A DNA stretch of 64,000 nucleotides from Corynebacterium sp. HMSC074A01 (GTDB lineage Bacteria > Actinomycetota > Actinomycetes > Mycobacteriales > Mycobacteriaceae), in assembly GCF_001831515.1 (NCBI RefSeq), contig NZ_KV825598.1, positions 21,703 through 85,702 of the forward strand, written 5' to 3'. Below, piece after piece: positions 9,006 through 55,314 of this stretch (its first letter is position 1; each line of letters starts with the position of its first letter). Under the pieces are notes generated by a model that saw only the letters and a program-made list of their open reading frames with translations, was not told where the DNA came from and made no database searches. A program made the translations under genes and the position numbers.

Positions 9006-9616
9006 TTGTCCTTCTAGATAACCAGGATTCCTTCGTATACAACCTGGTCGACGCGCTCGCTGAGTATGACTCAACAGTCTTCCGCAACACGGTGAGCGCG
9101 GACACCGTGCTCGCTGCTGAGCCAGACTTAATAGTGCTTTCGCCTGGCCCCGGTTACCCTGCGGAAGCCGGGTGCATGGCCGAACTCATCGAGCGGGCGC
9201 AGGGCAACATCCCCATGCTCGGCATCTGCCTGGGCTATCAGGCGCTGGTGGAGCACTTTGGGGGAGCGGTGAGGCCGTGCGGGCCGGTGCACGGGGCGTC
9301 GATAAGCATGGAGCTCACCGCCGCCGGGCAGGACTCGCCGCTGTTTACGGGCATGACCGTGGACGACATCCCAGGTCAGCCCGGCAAGCTCGTGCCGGTG
9401 GCGCGCTACCACTCCCTTGGGGCGACTGAGGTGCCGGCCGGGATGCACGCGCTCGCGTACACGGACACCGATATTGGCGACGTGGTGATGGCCGCGGCTA
9501 CCGACGACGGCATGTCCATTGGCCTGCAGTTTCACCCAGAATCGATTCTTACCCCCGCCGGGCCGACCATGTTGCGGCGCAGCGTAGACATGTTAATGAA
9601 GAAAGGTACTCAGTAA
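9002..9616 (+). CDS. trpG: Anthranilate synthase component II (glutamine amidotransferase)
   Basis: This encodes 204 residues, with a GTG start overlapping the trpE stop by four bases. The class I glutamine amidotransferase triad is visible as Cys76 in GICLGYQ and His178/Glu180 in FHPES. It hydrolyses glutamine and passes ammonia to TrpE. The protein is not fused to TrpD, unlike the enterobacterial arrangement. It carries one copy of the GCTTATCGACGCC word (9295-9307, minus orientation). The trpD start follows the stop codon with no gap. Confidence 0.95.
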   Translation: MIVLLDNQDSFVYNLVDALAEYDSTVFRNTVSADTVLAAEPDLIVLSPGPGYPAEAGCMAELIERAQGNIPMLGICLGYQALVEHFGGAVRPCGPVHGASISMELTAAGQDSPLFTGMTVDDIPGQPGKLVPVARYHSLGATEVPAGMHALAYTDTDIGDVVMAAATDDGMSIGLQFHPESILTPAGPTMLRRSVDMLMKKGTQ

Positions 9617-10645
9617 ATGGCATCGGATAAATCTCTCGAGATTCTCAAGCGCTTCCTGGACAACCACGAGCCGACGCTGGAGGAGGCCATCGAGGCCTTT
9701 ACCCCGCTGACCGTGGGCGATTACGACGACGTGCACATCGCCGCGCTGCTGGCCACGATCCGCACCCGCGGCGAAACTTTTGCCGACGTCGCCGGTGCCG
9801 CGCGCGCTTTCCTCGCCGCAGGCCGCCCGTTCCCCGTGACGGGGGAGGGGCTCATGGATACCGCTGGTACCGGCGGCGACGGCGCGAACACCATCAACAT
9901 CACCACGGCGGCCTCCCTCGTCGCGGCAGCGGGCGGGGTGAAGATGATCAAGTGCGGCAACCGCTCGGTGTCCTCCAAGTCCGGCTCGGCCGACGTACTT
10001 GAGGCGCTGAATATTCCGCTTGACCTGGACCCGGAGCGCGCGGTGCGCCAGTTCGAGTCTTCCAACTTCACCTTCCTCTTCGCGCCCGCCTACAACCCGG
10101 CGATCGCGCACGTCCAGCCGGTGCGCAAGGCGCTCGGCGTCTCCACGCTGTTTAACACGATGGGCCCGCTGCTCTCGCCGGCGCGCCCCGAGTTCCAGAT
10201 CATGGGCATCGCTAACCCGGCGCAGGGCCAGCTCATCGCGGAAACCATGCGTGAGCTGGGTCGCGGCCGCGCGCTCGTGGTCCACGGCGCGGGCACGGAC
10301 GAGCTTGCCGTCCACGGCGAGTCGCAGATCTGGGAGCTGGACCGCGAGGGCAACATTCCCCACTACACGGTCACCCCGGAGGAGCTGGGTATTTCCCGCC
10401 ACTCGCTCGAGGACCTGCGTGGTGGCGACGGGGCAGAGAACGCCGCCGCGATGCGCGCCACCTTCGCCGGCGAGAGCCCGCAGGCGCACCGCGATGCGGT
10501 CGCCGCCACCGCCGGTGCCATGTTCTACCTCTACGGCACGTGCGAGACCATCGCCGAGGGCGTCAAGCACGCAAGGGCTTTGCTTGACGACGGCACGGTG
10601 CAGGATTGGTTGGCCCGCCACGAGGAGGCTGACTACAGTGTCTAA
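9617..10645 (+). CDS. trpD: Anthranilate phosphoribosyltransferase
   Basis: This encodes 342 residues, starting directly after the trpG stop. It transfers phosphoribose from PRPP to anthranilate. Conserved family blocks are GTGGDGANTINITT (PRPP/Mg binding), KCGNRSVSSKSGSADVLEAL (anthranilate site) and GVSTLFNTMGPLLSPA. Its length is normal. The end overlaps the start of trpCF by eight bases, so it is part of the tightly packed operon. Confidence 0.96.
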   Translation: MASDKSLEILKRFLDNHEPTLEEAIEAFTPLTVGDYDDVHIAALLATIRTRGETFADVAGAARAFLAAGRPFPVTGEGLMDTAGTGGDGANTINITTAASLVAAAGGVKMIKCGNRSVSSKSGSADVLEALNIPLDLDPERAVRQFESSNFTFLFAPAYNPAIAHVQPVRKALGVSTLFNTMGPLLSPARPEFQIMGIANPAQGQLIAETMRELGRGRALVVHGAGTDELAVHGESQIWELDREGNIPHYTVTPEELGISRHSLEDLRGGDGAENAAAMRATFAGESPQAHRDAVAATAGAMFYLYGTCETIAEGVKHARALLDDGTVQDWLARHEEADYSV

Positions 10646-12077
10646 GGATTCCCCGCTGCCCACCGTACTGGAGGGGATCGTCGAGGGCCGTAAAGGTCAC
10701 CTTGACGAAATTCGCCAGCGGGTCGCTCACGTAGATTTCGACACGTTACCTAAATCGGAGCGTTCGCTCTACGCCAACCTCAAGGCACCCGGCACGAGCT
10801 TCATCATGGAGTGCAAGTCCTCCTCGCCCTCGCTCGGGTTGATCCGCGAGCACTACGAGCCCGGCGCGATCGCGTCCGTCTACTCCCGCTACGCCGCGGG
10901 CATCTCGGTGCTGTGCGAGCCTAACCGCTTCGGCGGCGACTACGACCACCTCGCCACCGTAGCCTCCACCACGCACCTGCCGGTGCTGTGCAAGGACTTT
11001 ATCATCGACGAGGTCCAGGTCTACGCCGCGCGCTACTACGGTGCCGACGCGATCTTGCTTATGCTTTCCGTCCTCGACGACGAGGAATACACGCGAATGG
11101 CCAACCTCGCGGATTCGCTCGGCATGGACGTCCTCACCGAGGTAATCGACGAGGAGGAGGCGACACGCGCCGCCAAGCTCGGCGCGAAGATCTTCGGCGT
11201 CAACCACCGCAACCTCCACGACTTGAGCATCGACCTGACCCGCTCGGCACGCCTGGCGAAGCACGCGCCCGCCGACGCCGTCGTGGTCTCCGAGTCCGGC
11301 ATCCGCAACGTGGAGACAGTGCGCCAGCTCGGCGCACACTCGGACGGTTTCCTCGTCGGCTCGCAGCTGACGAGCCAGCCTGACATCGACCTCGCCGCCC
11401 GCGAGCTGGTCTACGGTCCGAACAAGGTCTGCGGGCTCACCTCCTTCTCCGCCGCGCAGGCCGCCAAGGCGGCGGGCGCGGTCTACGGCGGCCTCATTTT
11501 CGAGGACGCGAGCCCCCGCGATGTTTCACGTGAAACATCGGCCGACATCATCGCCCACGAGCCCGGCCTGAAGTACGTCGCGGTCTCGCGGCGCACCTCC
11601 GACTTCGCCGAGCTCATCCAGCCCGGCATTCACGCCGTCCAGATCCACGCGCCCTACCAGGGCTCGCTGGAAGCGGAGCTCGACCTTATCGGCCGTGTGC
11701 GCGAGGAGGTCGGCACGGATATCGAGGTCTGGCGCGCGGTCTCCATGAGCGCCGGGGATGGGGGAGCGGTGGCGGAGGGGCTGCACGCGAGCGTCGATAA
11801 GCTTGTGCTCGATGCCCACGCCGGCGGCTCAGGCGAGACCTTCGACTGGGCGAACATTCCGGACACCGTTAAGCCGAAAACGCTGCTCGCGGGCGGCCTC
11901 AATCCCGAAAACCTCGCGGGCGCACTGGGCGTCGGCTGCGCTGGCCTCGATCTCAACTCCGGCGTGGAATACCCCGCCGGGGCGGGCTTGTGGGCCGGGC
12001 GTAAGGACGCCGGGGCACTGCGCCGCGCATTCGACATCATTGGCAACTACCACTACCCAAGGACGAACAATGAGTGA
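10638..12077 (+). CDS. trpCF: Bifunctional indole-3-glycerol phosphate synthase / phosphoribosylanthranilate isomerase
   Basis: This encodes 479 residues from a GTG at 10638 with GAGGAGG nine bases upstream. Residues 1 to about 255 are the TrpC barrel (IMECKSSSPSLGLI, CKDFIIDEVQVY, VNHRNL, VSESGI). From about 260 to the end is the TrpF barrel (KVCGLTSFSAAQAAKAAGA, LDAHAGGSGETFDW, LAGGLNPEN, DLNSGVE). The fusion is the usual one in corynebacteria and enterobacteria. A canonical parS lies inside the TrpF part (11522-11537) and is read as VSRET, so a centromere site is tolerated in a catalytic domain, presumably in a surface loop. The end overlaps trpB by eight bases. Confidence 0.95.
   Translation: MSKDSPLPTVLEGIVEGRKGHLDEIRQRVAHVDFDTLPKSERSLYANLKAPGTSFIMECKSSSPSLGLIREHYEPGAIASVYSRYAAGISVLCEPNRFGGDYDHLATVASTTHLPVLCKDFIIDEVQVYAARYYGADAILLMLSVLDDEEYTRMANLADSLGMDVLTEVIDEEEATRAAKLGAKIFGVNHRNLHDLSIDLTRSARLAKHAPADAVVVSESGIRNVETVRQLGAHSDGFLVGSQLTSQPDIDLAARELVYGPNKVCGLTSFSAAQAAKAAGAVYGGLIFEDASPRDVSRETSADIIAHEPGLKYVAVSRRTSDFAELIQPGIHAVQIHAPYQGSLEAELDLIGRVREEVGTDIEVWRAVSMSAGDGGAVAEGLHASVDKLVLDAHAGGSGETFDWANIPDTVKPKTLLAGGLNPENLAGALGVGCAGLDLNSGVEYPAGAGLWAGRKDAGALRRAFDIIGNYHYPRTNNE
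11522..11537. other. parS: parS site 3 inside trpCF
   Basis: An exact TGTTTCACGTGAAACA within flanking GA/TC makes a longer palindrome. It is coding, read as V-S-R-E-T in the TrpF half of the fusion protein. Confidence 0.95.
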
Positions 12078-54945: not shown

Positions 54946-55290
54946 ATGGCCGCACGGAAGGTAACCATCCGTAACATCGGCGCGAGCTCGATGTTCAAGG
55001 TGGCGACGATCCTGGCGCTCATCGGGTTCGTGGCGTGGATGATCGGCGTGACCATCGTCTACTTCGGCCTGGAGCAGGCCGGGGTGATCGACTCGGTGAA
55101 CTCGCTCATCGGCGGCGTCGGCGGCGACCAGGTCATCGATATGAAGGTCTGCCTGTCAGCCGCCGGCCTGCTGGGCCTGATCGGCGTGGTGTTTACCGCC
55201 ATCATGGCGCCGCTGACCGTGGTGATTTACAACAGCATCGCTGATCTTGTAGGCGGCGTCAGCTTCACTATGTCCAACCGCGCAAAGTAG
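54946..55290 (+). CDS. DUF3566 transmembrane protein (Rv0007-like)
   Basis: This encodes 114 residues with two membrane segments (FKVATILALIGFVAWMIGVTIVYF and LLGLIGVVFTAIMAPLTVVIYNSI). The N-terminal basic KVTIRNIGASSMFKV and the fold match the DUF3566 family located directly downstream of gyrA in actinobacteria. Mycobacterial homologues have a longer cytoplasmic N-terminus. Function unknown. It starts three bases after gyrA and is co-transcribed. Confidence 0.85.
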   Translation: MAARKVTIRNIGASSMFKVATILALIGFVAWMIGVTIVYFGLEQAGVIDSVNSLIGGVGGDQVIDMKVCLSAAGLLGLIGVVFTAIMAPLTVVIYNSIADLVGGVSFTMSNRAK

Positions 55291-55301
55291 GGCTAAGGGG
55301 T

Positions 55302-55314
55302 GCTTATCGACGCC
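55302..55314 (+). repeat. Intergenic copy of the GCTTATCGACGCC word
   Basis: This is the only one of twelve copies in the window that lies outside a coding region. The other cores start at 9295(-), 11791(-), 16240(+), 27589(-), 30886(+), 37827(+), 45725(+), 46379(-), 50444(-), 51284(+) and 54908(-). See the corresponding finding. Confidence 0.7.

What the first reader, a model, noticed from the sequence alone, without database searches (positions are those of the whole stretch)
9295..55314. A 12-copy DNA word, GCTTATCGACG(CC), spread over the core origin region
Seen directly: plus-orientation copies at 16240, 30886, 37827, 45725, 51284 and 55302; minus-orientation copies (GCGTCGATAAGC core) at 9295, 11791, 27589, 46379, 50444 and 54908. 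A given 11-mer is expected about 0.03 times in 64 kb on both strands. The copies fall in different reading frames (L-I-D-A, A-S-I-S, S-V-D-K), on both gene strands, and once in an intergenic region (55302), so protein conservation cannot explain them. Related forms with C or G at the variable position occur (for example GGCGTCGACAAGC at 38732). There is no strand bias relative to oriC, unlike KOPS or Chi. None lies in the accessory segments 0-9 kb or 55.4-64 kb. Inference: a chromosome-wide binding site for a nucleoid-associated, occlusion-type or recombination protein, or an uptake word. I do not recognise it.
Basis: partly seen in the sequence, partly recalled or inferred. Interest (0 to 1): 0.78.

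Follow-up and report, generated by a model that had tools for sequence, protein, structure and literature searches.

The report
Corynebacterium's own-DNA uptake word
Most Corynebacterium genomes examined carry hundreds of copies of one short split DNA word, spelled differently in different lineages and scarce in the prophage stretches examined, which is likely a label by which these bacteria would recognise and take up DNA of their own kind.

Summary
The word is real but not special to the origin. GCTTATCGACG occurs 359 times in the 2.55-Mb Corynebacterium genome (reversed word: 1). It belongs to a split motif, GCTT-NN-CGACG, with 1533 copies (control 99). Only the 2-base gap is enriched (241 in 400 kb, 10.3 expected). 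Synonymous-codon shuffling does not reproduce it, and it is about 50-fold enriched between genes. Leading-strand copies are 88 of 182, unlike KOPS or Chi. Of 242 genomes of the genus, 189 hold GCTTRHCGAYG at 94-1291 copies and 53 lie near background. Six of the 53 carry TCTT-NN-TGACG and one ATGACG-N-CGCG instead. In 30 other genera of the family it is at most 2.6 times its control. Prophage stretches hold 4 where 27.8 are expected. ComEC and DprA occur in 121 of 121 genomes, a Tad ATPase over its cut-off in 112. Best reading: a DNA uptake word with lineage dialects, like Neisseria DUS, in an actinobacterium. Uptake itself is untested; no receptor was found, and word-less genomes keep the same machinery.

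The parts
2423..2433 (-). core word GCTTCACGACG, intergenic by my gene calls
   Evidence: pattern match
5253..5263 (-). core word GCTTGACGACG
7012..7022 (+). core word GCTTGCCGACG
7682..7692 (+). core word GCTTGCCGACG
9297..9307 (-). exact word GCTTATCGACG
10582..10592 (+). core word GCTTGACGACG
11792..11802 (-). exact word GCTTATCGACG
12288..12298 (+). core word GCTTGACGACG
13738..13748 (+). core word GCTTCCCGACG
14970..14980 (-). core word GCTTCGCGACG
16240..16250 (+). exact word GCTTATCGACG
19986..19996 (-). core word GCTTGGCGACG
20634..20644 (-). core word GCTTACCGACG
21084..21094 (-). core word GCTTGCCGACG
22573..22583 (-). core word GCTTGTCGACG
24567..24577 (+). core word GCTTCTCGACG
24627..24637 (+). 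core word GCTTGCCGACG
27591..27601 (-). exact word GCTTATCGACG
29413..29423 (+). core word GCTTGTCGACG
30886..30896 (+). exact word GCTTATCGACG
31845..31855 (+). core word GCTTCTCGACG
32790..32800 (+). core word GCTTTTCGACG
35526..35536 (-). core word GCTTCTCGACG
37827..37837 (+). exact word GCTTATCGACG
38733..38743 (-). core word GCTTGTCGACG, intergenic by my gene calls
41708..41718 (+). core word GCTTGTCGACG, inside dnaA (41571-43178)
43385..43395 (-). core word GCTTTGCGACG, intergenic by my gene calls
45725..45735 (+). exact word GCTTATCGACG
46380..46390 (-). exact word GCTTATCGACG
50446..50456 (-). exact word GCTTATCGACG
51284..51294 (+). exact word GCTTATCGACG, intergenic by my gene calls
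52161..52171 (-). core word GCTTGACGACG
53640..53650 (+). core word GCTTCTCGACG
54908..54918 (-). exact word GCTTATCGACG
55302..55312 (+). exact word GCTTATCGACG, intergenic by my gene calls

Best explanation
The word is a split motif, GCTT-NN-CGACG, that is spread over the whole genome at about one copy per 1.7 kb and is spelled differently in different Corynebacterium lineages; it is likely a DNA uptake sequence, a label by which a competent cell would preferentially bind and import DNA of its own kind. Proposed working: a DNA-binding part of the uptake machine on the cell surface, most plausibly a minor pilin or pilus-tip protein of the Tad-type pilus, would catch double-stranded DNA that carries the word. 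ComEA and ComEC would pull one strand in, and DprA and RecA would recombine it. Fragments that carry the word would be imported and recombined more often, so copies would build up in the shared genome without any benefit at the single site, and stay rare in recently arrived prophages. Shown by calls: abundance, gap, strand balance, DNA-level constraint, dialects, genus limit within the family, prophage depletion, presence of ComEA, ComEC, DprA and Tad genes. Inferred: that the word promotes uptake, which protein reads it, and that these species are naturally competent.
For: 359 exact words against 1 reversed; 1533 cores against 99, about one per 1.7 kb; Neisseriaceae dialects number from 943 to 5918 copies per genome in the passages I saw (PMC3630211). 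Gap of exactly 2: 241 seen, 10.3 expected; gaps 0, 1, 3, 4, 5 give 25, 10, 23, 5, 12 with 8.5-16.3 expected; near-miss words 322 against 233 expected. DNA-level: in genes 217 cores against a mean of 21.4 after synonymous-codon shuffling (40 shuffles, maximum 31); between genes 24 against 0.45. Both strands: leading-strand copies 88 of 182, p 0.71. In genes 157 copies run with the gene and 58 against it; a preferred orientation inside genes is reported for known uptake sequences (PMC2346458, part 1 of 3 read). Dialects: GCTT-NN-CGATG in G001 and G004 and in Corynebacterium sp. MSK130, where the C form is 0 and the T form 9; TCTT-NN-TGACG at 180-214 copies in 6 of 242 genomes, the rest at most 48, all six low for the main word; ATGACG-N-CGCG at 661 copies in 1 of 242, the rest at most 64. 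They align on a shared YGAYG core with TT two bases before it. Foreign DNA: in stretches at terminase genes of 15 word-bearing genomes, 4 words against 28.7 expected; leaving out one half-masked stretch, 4 against 27.8, P about 2e-8. 20 ordinary stretches of bearers, at com and tad loci, gave 120 against 98.1. Machinery: ComEC 121 of 121, DprA 121 of 121, Tad ATPase matched in 118 and over the cut-off in 112 of 121; ComEA, Flp-like, TadE-like and TadG-like proteins in G000.
Against: The same competence and Tad genes are present in genomes that lack the word, so presence of the word does not follow presence of the machinery. No gene was found whose presence tracks the word, and I tested only ComEC, TadA, DprA, RecC and TadE across the genus sample. 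The TadE-like pilin is kept at 73-91 bits in word-less G008, G043 and G103, which the tree places among bearers, and in G140 and G193. None of the titles and abstracts listed by my paper searches reports natural transformation in Corynebacterium (lists partly capped). Inverted pairs, which form terminators in Haemophilus (PMC5217627 passage), are rare: one within 60 bases among 241 cores. Prophage depletion would be expected of any word that builds up slowly, and the looser form GCTT-NN-CGAYG still has 11 copies in the prophage stretches. 46 of the 53 low genomes carry none of the three spellings above background; I looked for other words in only 9 of these 46, in 100-kb samples. Spacing of the cores is random.
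Confidence: 0.66

Rival explanations
1. The word is the binding site of a chromosome-wide DNA-binding protein (nucleoid-associated, occlusion-type or segregation protein) that organises or marks the host chromosome.
For: Genome-wide, on both strands, sharp gapped motif like a protein footprint, scarce in prophage DNA.
Against: Losing the word from whole genomes nested among bearers (G206; G008 and G103; G043) and respelling it to mutually exclusive forms would need hundreds of sites to be lost or changed while the protein stays needed. 215 of 241 sampled copies lie inside genes. Density against distance from the origin was not measured genome-wide.
Confidence: 0.16
2. The word is a recombination hot spot of the Chi kind, read by the end-processing helicase-nuclease of these bacteria.
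For: Asymmetric short word, genome-wide, lineage-specific spelling, scarce in prophage DNA.
Against: No excess on the leading strand: 88 of 182, p 0.71. RecC (PF04257) is found in 0 of 121 genomes, so no RecBCD was found to read it. AddAB and AdnAB were not searched; corynebacteria are thought to use AdnAB, for which I recall no Chi (recalled, no call).
Confidence: 0.09
3. The word is a side effect of protein motifs, codon choice or codon-pair bias (Leu-x-Asp written CTT NNC GAC).
For: 144 of 215 gene copies lie in the Leu-x-Asp frame.
Against: Shuffling synonymous codons gives a mean of 6.25 copies in that frame against 144; antisense frames, other frames and intergenic DNA are enriched too.
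Confidence: 0.01
4. The word is a relic: an uptake or other system that used it in the ancestor is no longer active in most species, and the copies are decaying.
For: Copy numbers vary widely, 94 to 1291 among bearers; in G014, with 329 copies, ComEC and the Tad ATPase each match in two pieces.
Against: Near-miss words exceed chance only modestly (322 against 233) beside 241 exact cores where 10.3 are expected, which argues for upkeep rather than decay in the window's genome.
Confidence: 0.06

Closest known systems
DNA uptake sequence (DUS) of Neisseriaceae, with dialects, read by the minor pilin ComP
   Same: About a thousand or more copies of a short non-palindromic word; dialects that share a core (eight dialects, three-base common core; PMC3630211, 12 of 71 passages seen).
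   Different: Here the word has a two-base gap, the host is a high-GC actinobacterium with a Tad-type pilus cluster rather than type IVa pili, and neither uptake nor a receptor has been shown.
Uptake signal sequence (USS) of Pasteurellaceae
   Same: About nine fixed bases, hundreds to thousands of copies, no general orientation bias in the genome, one orientation preferred inside genes (PMC2346458, part 1 of 3 read).
   Different: Hardly any terminator-like inverted pairs here; unrelated spelling. A minor pilin (title: ComN) is only predicted as the USS receptor (PMC12616744, title and start of abstract).
Chi sites (RecBCD, AddAB)
   Same: Short asymmetric word spread over the genome.
   Different: No leading-strand excess and no RecC in 121 genomes.
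KOPS (FtsK-orienting sequences)
   Same: Short asymmetric genome-wide word.
   Different: KOPS are skewed to one strand of each replichore (recalled); here 88 of 182.
HIP1-type over-represented octamers of cyanobacteria
   Same: A word abundant within genes.
   Different: HIP1 is a palindrome (recalled); this word is asymmetric and gapped.

Membership tests
DNA uptake sequence (DUS/USS) | Strong genome-wide over-representation of one short word | tested here: met
   359 against 1; 1533 against 99
DNA uptake sequence (DUS/USS) | Both strands, no replichore bias | tested here: met
   88 of 182 leading-strand on the contig with the origin, p 0.71; 188 and 171 genome-wide
DNA uptake sequence (DUS/USS) | Constraint at DNA level, in genes in several frames and between genes | tested here: met
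   400 kb
DNA uptake sequence (DUS/USS) | Lineage dialects that share a core | tested here: met
DNA uptake sequence (DUS/USS) | Rare in foreign DNA such as prophages | tested here: met
   4 against 27.8 in 14 stretches; prophage extent not checked gene by gene; plasmids not tested
DNA uptake sequence (DUS/USS) | Host encodes the DNA uptake machinery | tested here: met
   ComEC 121/121, DprA 121/121, Tad ATPase 112/121 over cut-off, ComEA and pilins in G000
DNA uptake sequence (DUS/USS) | Word-less relatives lack or have altered machinery | tested here: inconclusive
   Machinery present in word-less genomes too; ComEC frames longer there (median 711 against 550.5 aa), not corrected for kinship
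DNA uptake sequence (DUS/USS) | Word raises uptake and transformation | not testable with these tools
   needs the bench
DNA uptake sequence (DUS/USS) | Specific receptor (minor pilin) binds the word | not testable with these tools
   no discriminating gene found
DNA uptake sequence (DUS/USS) | Inverted pairs in terminators (common, not defining) | tested here: not met
   one inverted pair within 60 bases among 241 cores
Chi site | Excess on the leading strand | tested here: not met
Chi site | Cognate RecBCD-type enzyme present | tested here: not met
   RecC 0 of 121; AddAB and AdnAB not searched
KOPS | Strand skew towards the terminus | tested here: not met
Nucleoid-associated or occlusion protein site | Bound by a chromosomal protein; gradient between origin and terminus | not tested
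   density along the whole chromosome not measured; no binding data

The most novel reading that the evidence does not exclude
Corynebacterium has its own self-recognition code for DNA uptake: a gapped word with at least three mutually exclusive spellings, read by a Tad-type pilus, which acts as a species barrier to gene exchange across a whole Gram-positive genus. It would be the first uptake-word system outside the Gram-negative Proteobacteria that I know of (recalled).
Probability: 0.5. Interest if true: 0.93.

Novelty: new variant of a known kind. Interest (0 to 1): 0.85.

Why it matters
Uptake words are known, as far as I recall, only from Gram-negative families. If this is one, it arose independently in an actinobacterium that works with a different pilus, so self-recognition of DNA would be a general outcome of competence. 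It predicts that many Corynebacterium species, which are handled in the laboratory by electroporation (recalled), are naturally competent, and it names the tag with which to test that. The dialects predict which species can exchange genes. If it is not an uptake word, a 9-base split word kept at more than a thousand places in a genome and respelled between lineages has no explanation that I know of.

Tried and rejected
Origin-specific feature: rejected; 12 copies in 64 kb against 359 in 2.55 Mb. Protein motif or codon bias: rejected by codon shuffling. KOPS or Chi: no strand bias, RecC absent in 121 of 121. ComEC loss: ComEC is found in 121 of 121. ComEC form: open frames are shorter in word-bearing genomes (median 550.5 in 96 against 711 in 25, p 2e-7, not corrected for kinship); I first guessed loss of a C-terminal nuclease domain, but a Pfam scan of four of them (two bearers, two word-less) shows only the Competence domain, starting at 176 and 190 in the short ones and 304 and 313 in the long ones, so most of the difference lies before it, and word-less genomes with short ComEC frames exist (G008, G043, G103, G140). 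Tad pilus loss: the cluster is present in word-less genomes. DprA loss: 121 of 121. TadE-like pilin as the discriminating part: looked promising in G206 (31.6% against 46.7% in its sister G005), but word-less G008, G043, G103, G140 and G193 keep it. Even spacing: not found, CV 1.03 and 1.17. Terminator pairs: not found. Other words in 100-kb samples of 11 genomes low for the main word: G007, G008, G011, G018, G043, G066, G206 and G227 gave no clear uptake-type word (several have repeats or palindromes), G103 was swamped by a repeat, G081 and G012 gave dialects. Papers: 9 searches, of which searches listed only part of their hits, showed no title or abstract reporting this word or an uptake word in Corynebacterium; two papers contain the 11 letters (a plant 5' UTR and a virus clone paper by title, not opened). 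The survey of spaced motifs PMC5217627 (8 passages) shows only CRISPR-related pairs for its three Corynebacterium genomes. PMC8282179, a C. durum paper, mentions natural competence only for Streptococcus mutans (2 passages). Subscription papers are not covered.

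
Full report
OBSERVATION. Over the whole genome (2,549,445 bases in 40 contigs) there are 188 forward and 171 reverse copies, and 1 copy of the reversed word. The window's density, 12 in 64 kb, is close to the genome's 359 in 2549 kb, so this is no origin feature.

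WHAT THE WORD IS. I took 400 kb of the genome. One-base neighbours showed that the fifth base tolerates change, and the second, third and sixth only a little. A search for split words then gave the real motif, GCTT-NN-CGACG: 241 copies in 400 kb with 12.5 expected from its halves and 10.3 from a third-order Markov model. The first middle base is rarely T, the second is mostly T (0.58); G is avoided just before the word, and C is preferred two bases after it (0.72). The gap must be two: gaps of 0, 1, 3, 4 and 5 give 25, 10, 23, 5 and 12 copies with 8.5 to 16.3 expected. Words with one wrong base number 322 with 233 expected, so specificity is nearly all or none. Genome-wide the core has 1533 copies, reversed control 99.

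NOT CHANCE, NOT PROTEIN, NOT CODONS. With my own simple gene calls, 215 of 241 cores lie in genes, 157 with the gene and 58 against it; 26 lie between genes or across an edge. The commonest frame spells Leu-x-Asp (144). When synonymous codons were shuffled among all 318 genes, 40 times, total cores fell to a mean of 21.4, maximum 31, against 217 observed; the exact word fell to 1.95 against 56 (overlapping gene calls explain the small difference). Every frame with more than one core exceeded its shuffled maximum. Between genes 24 cores stand against 0.45 in a second-order Markov simulation. Known uptake sequences also prefer one orientation inside genes (PMC2346458, part 1 of 3 read).

STRANDS AND SPACING. 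dnaA lies at window 41571-43178. On the contig that holds it, 88 of 182 cores lie on the leading strand, p 0.71. Spacing is random (CV 1.03 and 1.17). Only three neighbouring pairs lie within 60 bases, one of them inverted.

DISTRIBUTION. The exact word was counted in 242 genomes of the genus: 0 to 782 copies, reversed controls in single digits. With GCTTRHCGAYG the genomes split into 189 with 94-1291 copies and 53 with 15-81; reversed controls run from 2 to 47, so some of the 53 still stand a few-fold above theirs. In 185 genomes of 30 other genera of the family the core stays near its control, at most 2.6 times it. Named records confirm it. Of 58 stretches of 8-22 kb around dnaA, 57 titled Corynebacterium and one only Mycobacteriaceae, those of C. 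riegelii, C. silvaticum, C. tuberculostearicum, C. kefirresidentii, C. pilosum, C. gottingense and C. bouchesdurhonense hold 9-15 cores, while those of C. meridianum, C. pygosceleis and sp. HMSC04H06 hold none; 22 stretches of other bacteria hold 15 and 13 of the two forms with 18 of the reversed control.

DIALECTS. Samples of 100 kb showed GCTT-NN-CGATG in G001 and G004, GCTTGACGACG as the favoured form in G005, TCTT-NN-TGACG-CC in G081 (12 copies), and ATGACG-N-CGCG in G012. Genus-wide, TCTT-NN-TGACG reaches 180-214 copies in six genomes (G045, G081, G082, G101, G174, G176) and at most 48 in the other 236. All six are among the 53 low genomes. ATGACG-N-CGCG reaches 661 copies in G012 and at most 64 in the other 241; G012 too is among the 53. 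In G012 the word is preceded by T at the two places where the other dialects have TT (0.48 and 0.73; 33 copies). So the three spellings line up as GCTT-NN-CGA(C/T)G, TCTT-NN-TGACG and TT-NN-TGACG-N-CGCG. Neisseriaceae DUS dialects likewise share a three-base core (PMC3630211, passages). The other 46 low genomes have none of the three spellings above background.

HISTORY. On a tree of 23 Tad ATPases, rooted by me on G066, the word-bearing genomes need 4 changes (shuffled mean 8.0); 7 of 11 word-less genomes sit outside one strongly supported branch, and G206, G008 with G103, and G043 sit inside it. On a DnaA plus GyrB tree of 56 rows (55 of the 58 named stretches plus the window), 46 scored as bearing, 6 changes are needed (shuffled mean 9.4), with warnings about long branches and with states scored from single short stretches. 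The window's species is sister to C. gottingense there. This suits one deep gain and several losses; the TCTT-NN-TGACG genome G081 was scored as word-less in the first tree.

FOREIGN DNA. Terminase searches found prophages in many genomes. I used one stretch for each of the 15 word-bearing genomes with a terminase match below E 1e-13: eight of 10 kb and seven loci of about 4 kb. GCTTRHCGAYG occurs 4 times with 28.7 expected from the same genomes' averages. One stretch is more than half masked; without it 4 against 27.8, P about 2e-8. The looser GCTT-NN-CGAYG has 11 copies there. That each 10-kb stretch is prophage throughout was not checked gene by gene. Ordinary stretches of bearers, at com and tad loci, hold 120 with 98.1 expected in all 20 that I had (99 against 78.5 in the 13 first counted). 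In the window the last 8.7 kb hold none of the 35 cores, the first 9 kb hold 4.

MACHINERY. ComEC is found in 121 of 121 genomes, DprA in 121 of 121, the Tad-type ATPase TIGR03819 matches in 118 of 121, 112 over its cut-off (some of the weakest matches may be other ATPases). In the window's genome the Tad cluster holds an ATPase, a TadB-like frame that I did not scan, a T2SSF-type membrane protein, a DUF4244 Flp-like pilin, a TadE-like minor pilin (below its curated cut-off) and a Rv3654c-type TadE-like protein, and comEA lies directly before comEC. DNA binding by the flp pili of the actinobacterium Micrococcus luteus is reviewed in PMC6370729 (start of abstract only). But word-less genomes have the same genes, so the machinery does not tell bearers from non-bearers, and I found no receptor.

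VERDICT. The abundance, gap, strand balance, DNA-level constraint, mutually exclusive dialects and scarcity in prophages together are what uptake words show, and I know of no other class of genomic word that shows all of them. I put 0.66 on an uptake word. The weakest points are that I found no report of transformation in Corynebacterium among the papers listed, and that nothing tested in the gene content separates bearers from non-bearers.

Noticed in passing
window 4287, 7152, 11523, 16754, 20954, 24306, 25468: Seven copies of the parS-like palindrome GTTTCACGTGAAAC (parS named from memory), all 16-37 kb to the left of dnaA.
   Followed up: no
window 8 and 77; G000:C7 11281-263494: A palindromic repeat GGAGCTAGCTCC, 11 copies in 280 kb of C7, in pairs or a triplet 69 bases apart; none in 120 kb of C8.
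   Followed up: no
L095-L099 (G103:C7:1-100000): About 76 copies of an AT-rich repeat containing ATTTCTCATTACCCCTGATATAC in a GC-rich genome, perhaps a CRISPR array.
   Followed up: no
L036-L040 (G011) and L110-L114 (G206): The palindrome CCCGGATCCGG is over-represented in two genomes that lack the word (6 against 0.1 and 11 against 0.7 expected).
   Followed up: no
L085-L089 (G043): GCCGCGGCC 39 times against 12.8 expected, and repeated CAGAACGACGA and GACGATCGCGA words, in a word-less genome nested among bearers.
   Followed up: no
G014:C1 (297808-298844 and 1770371-1771135): Both ComEC and the Tad ATPase match in two separate pieces in this genome, which has fewer words (329) than many bearers; it may be losing competence.
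   Followed up: no
G147, G013, G040, G067, G103, G167, G190: A second or split DprA match in seven of 121 genomes.
   Followed up: no
G000:C7:265196-268441 (in L014): Four exact words within 2.4 kb just before the Tad ATPase gene, and two more cores inside it, denser than the genome average.
   Followed up: no
ComEC in 121 genomes: ComEC open frames are longer in word-less genomes (median 711 against 550.5 aa); in the four scanned by Pfam most of the added length lies before the Competence domain.
   Followed up: partly
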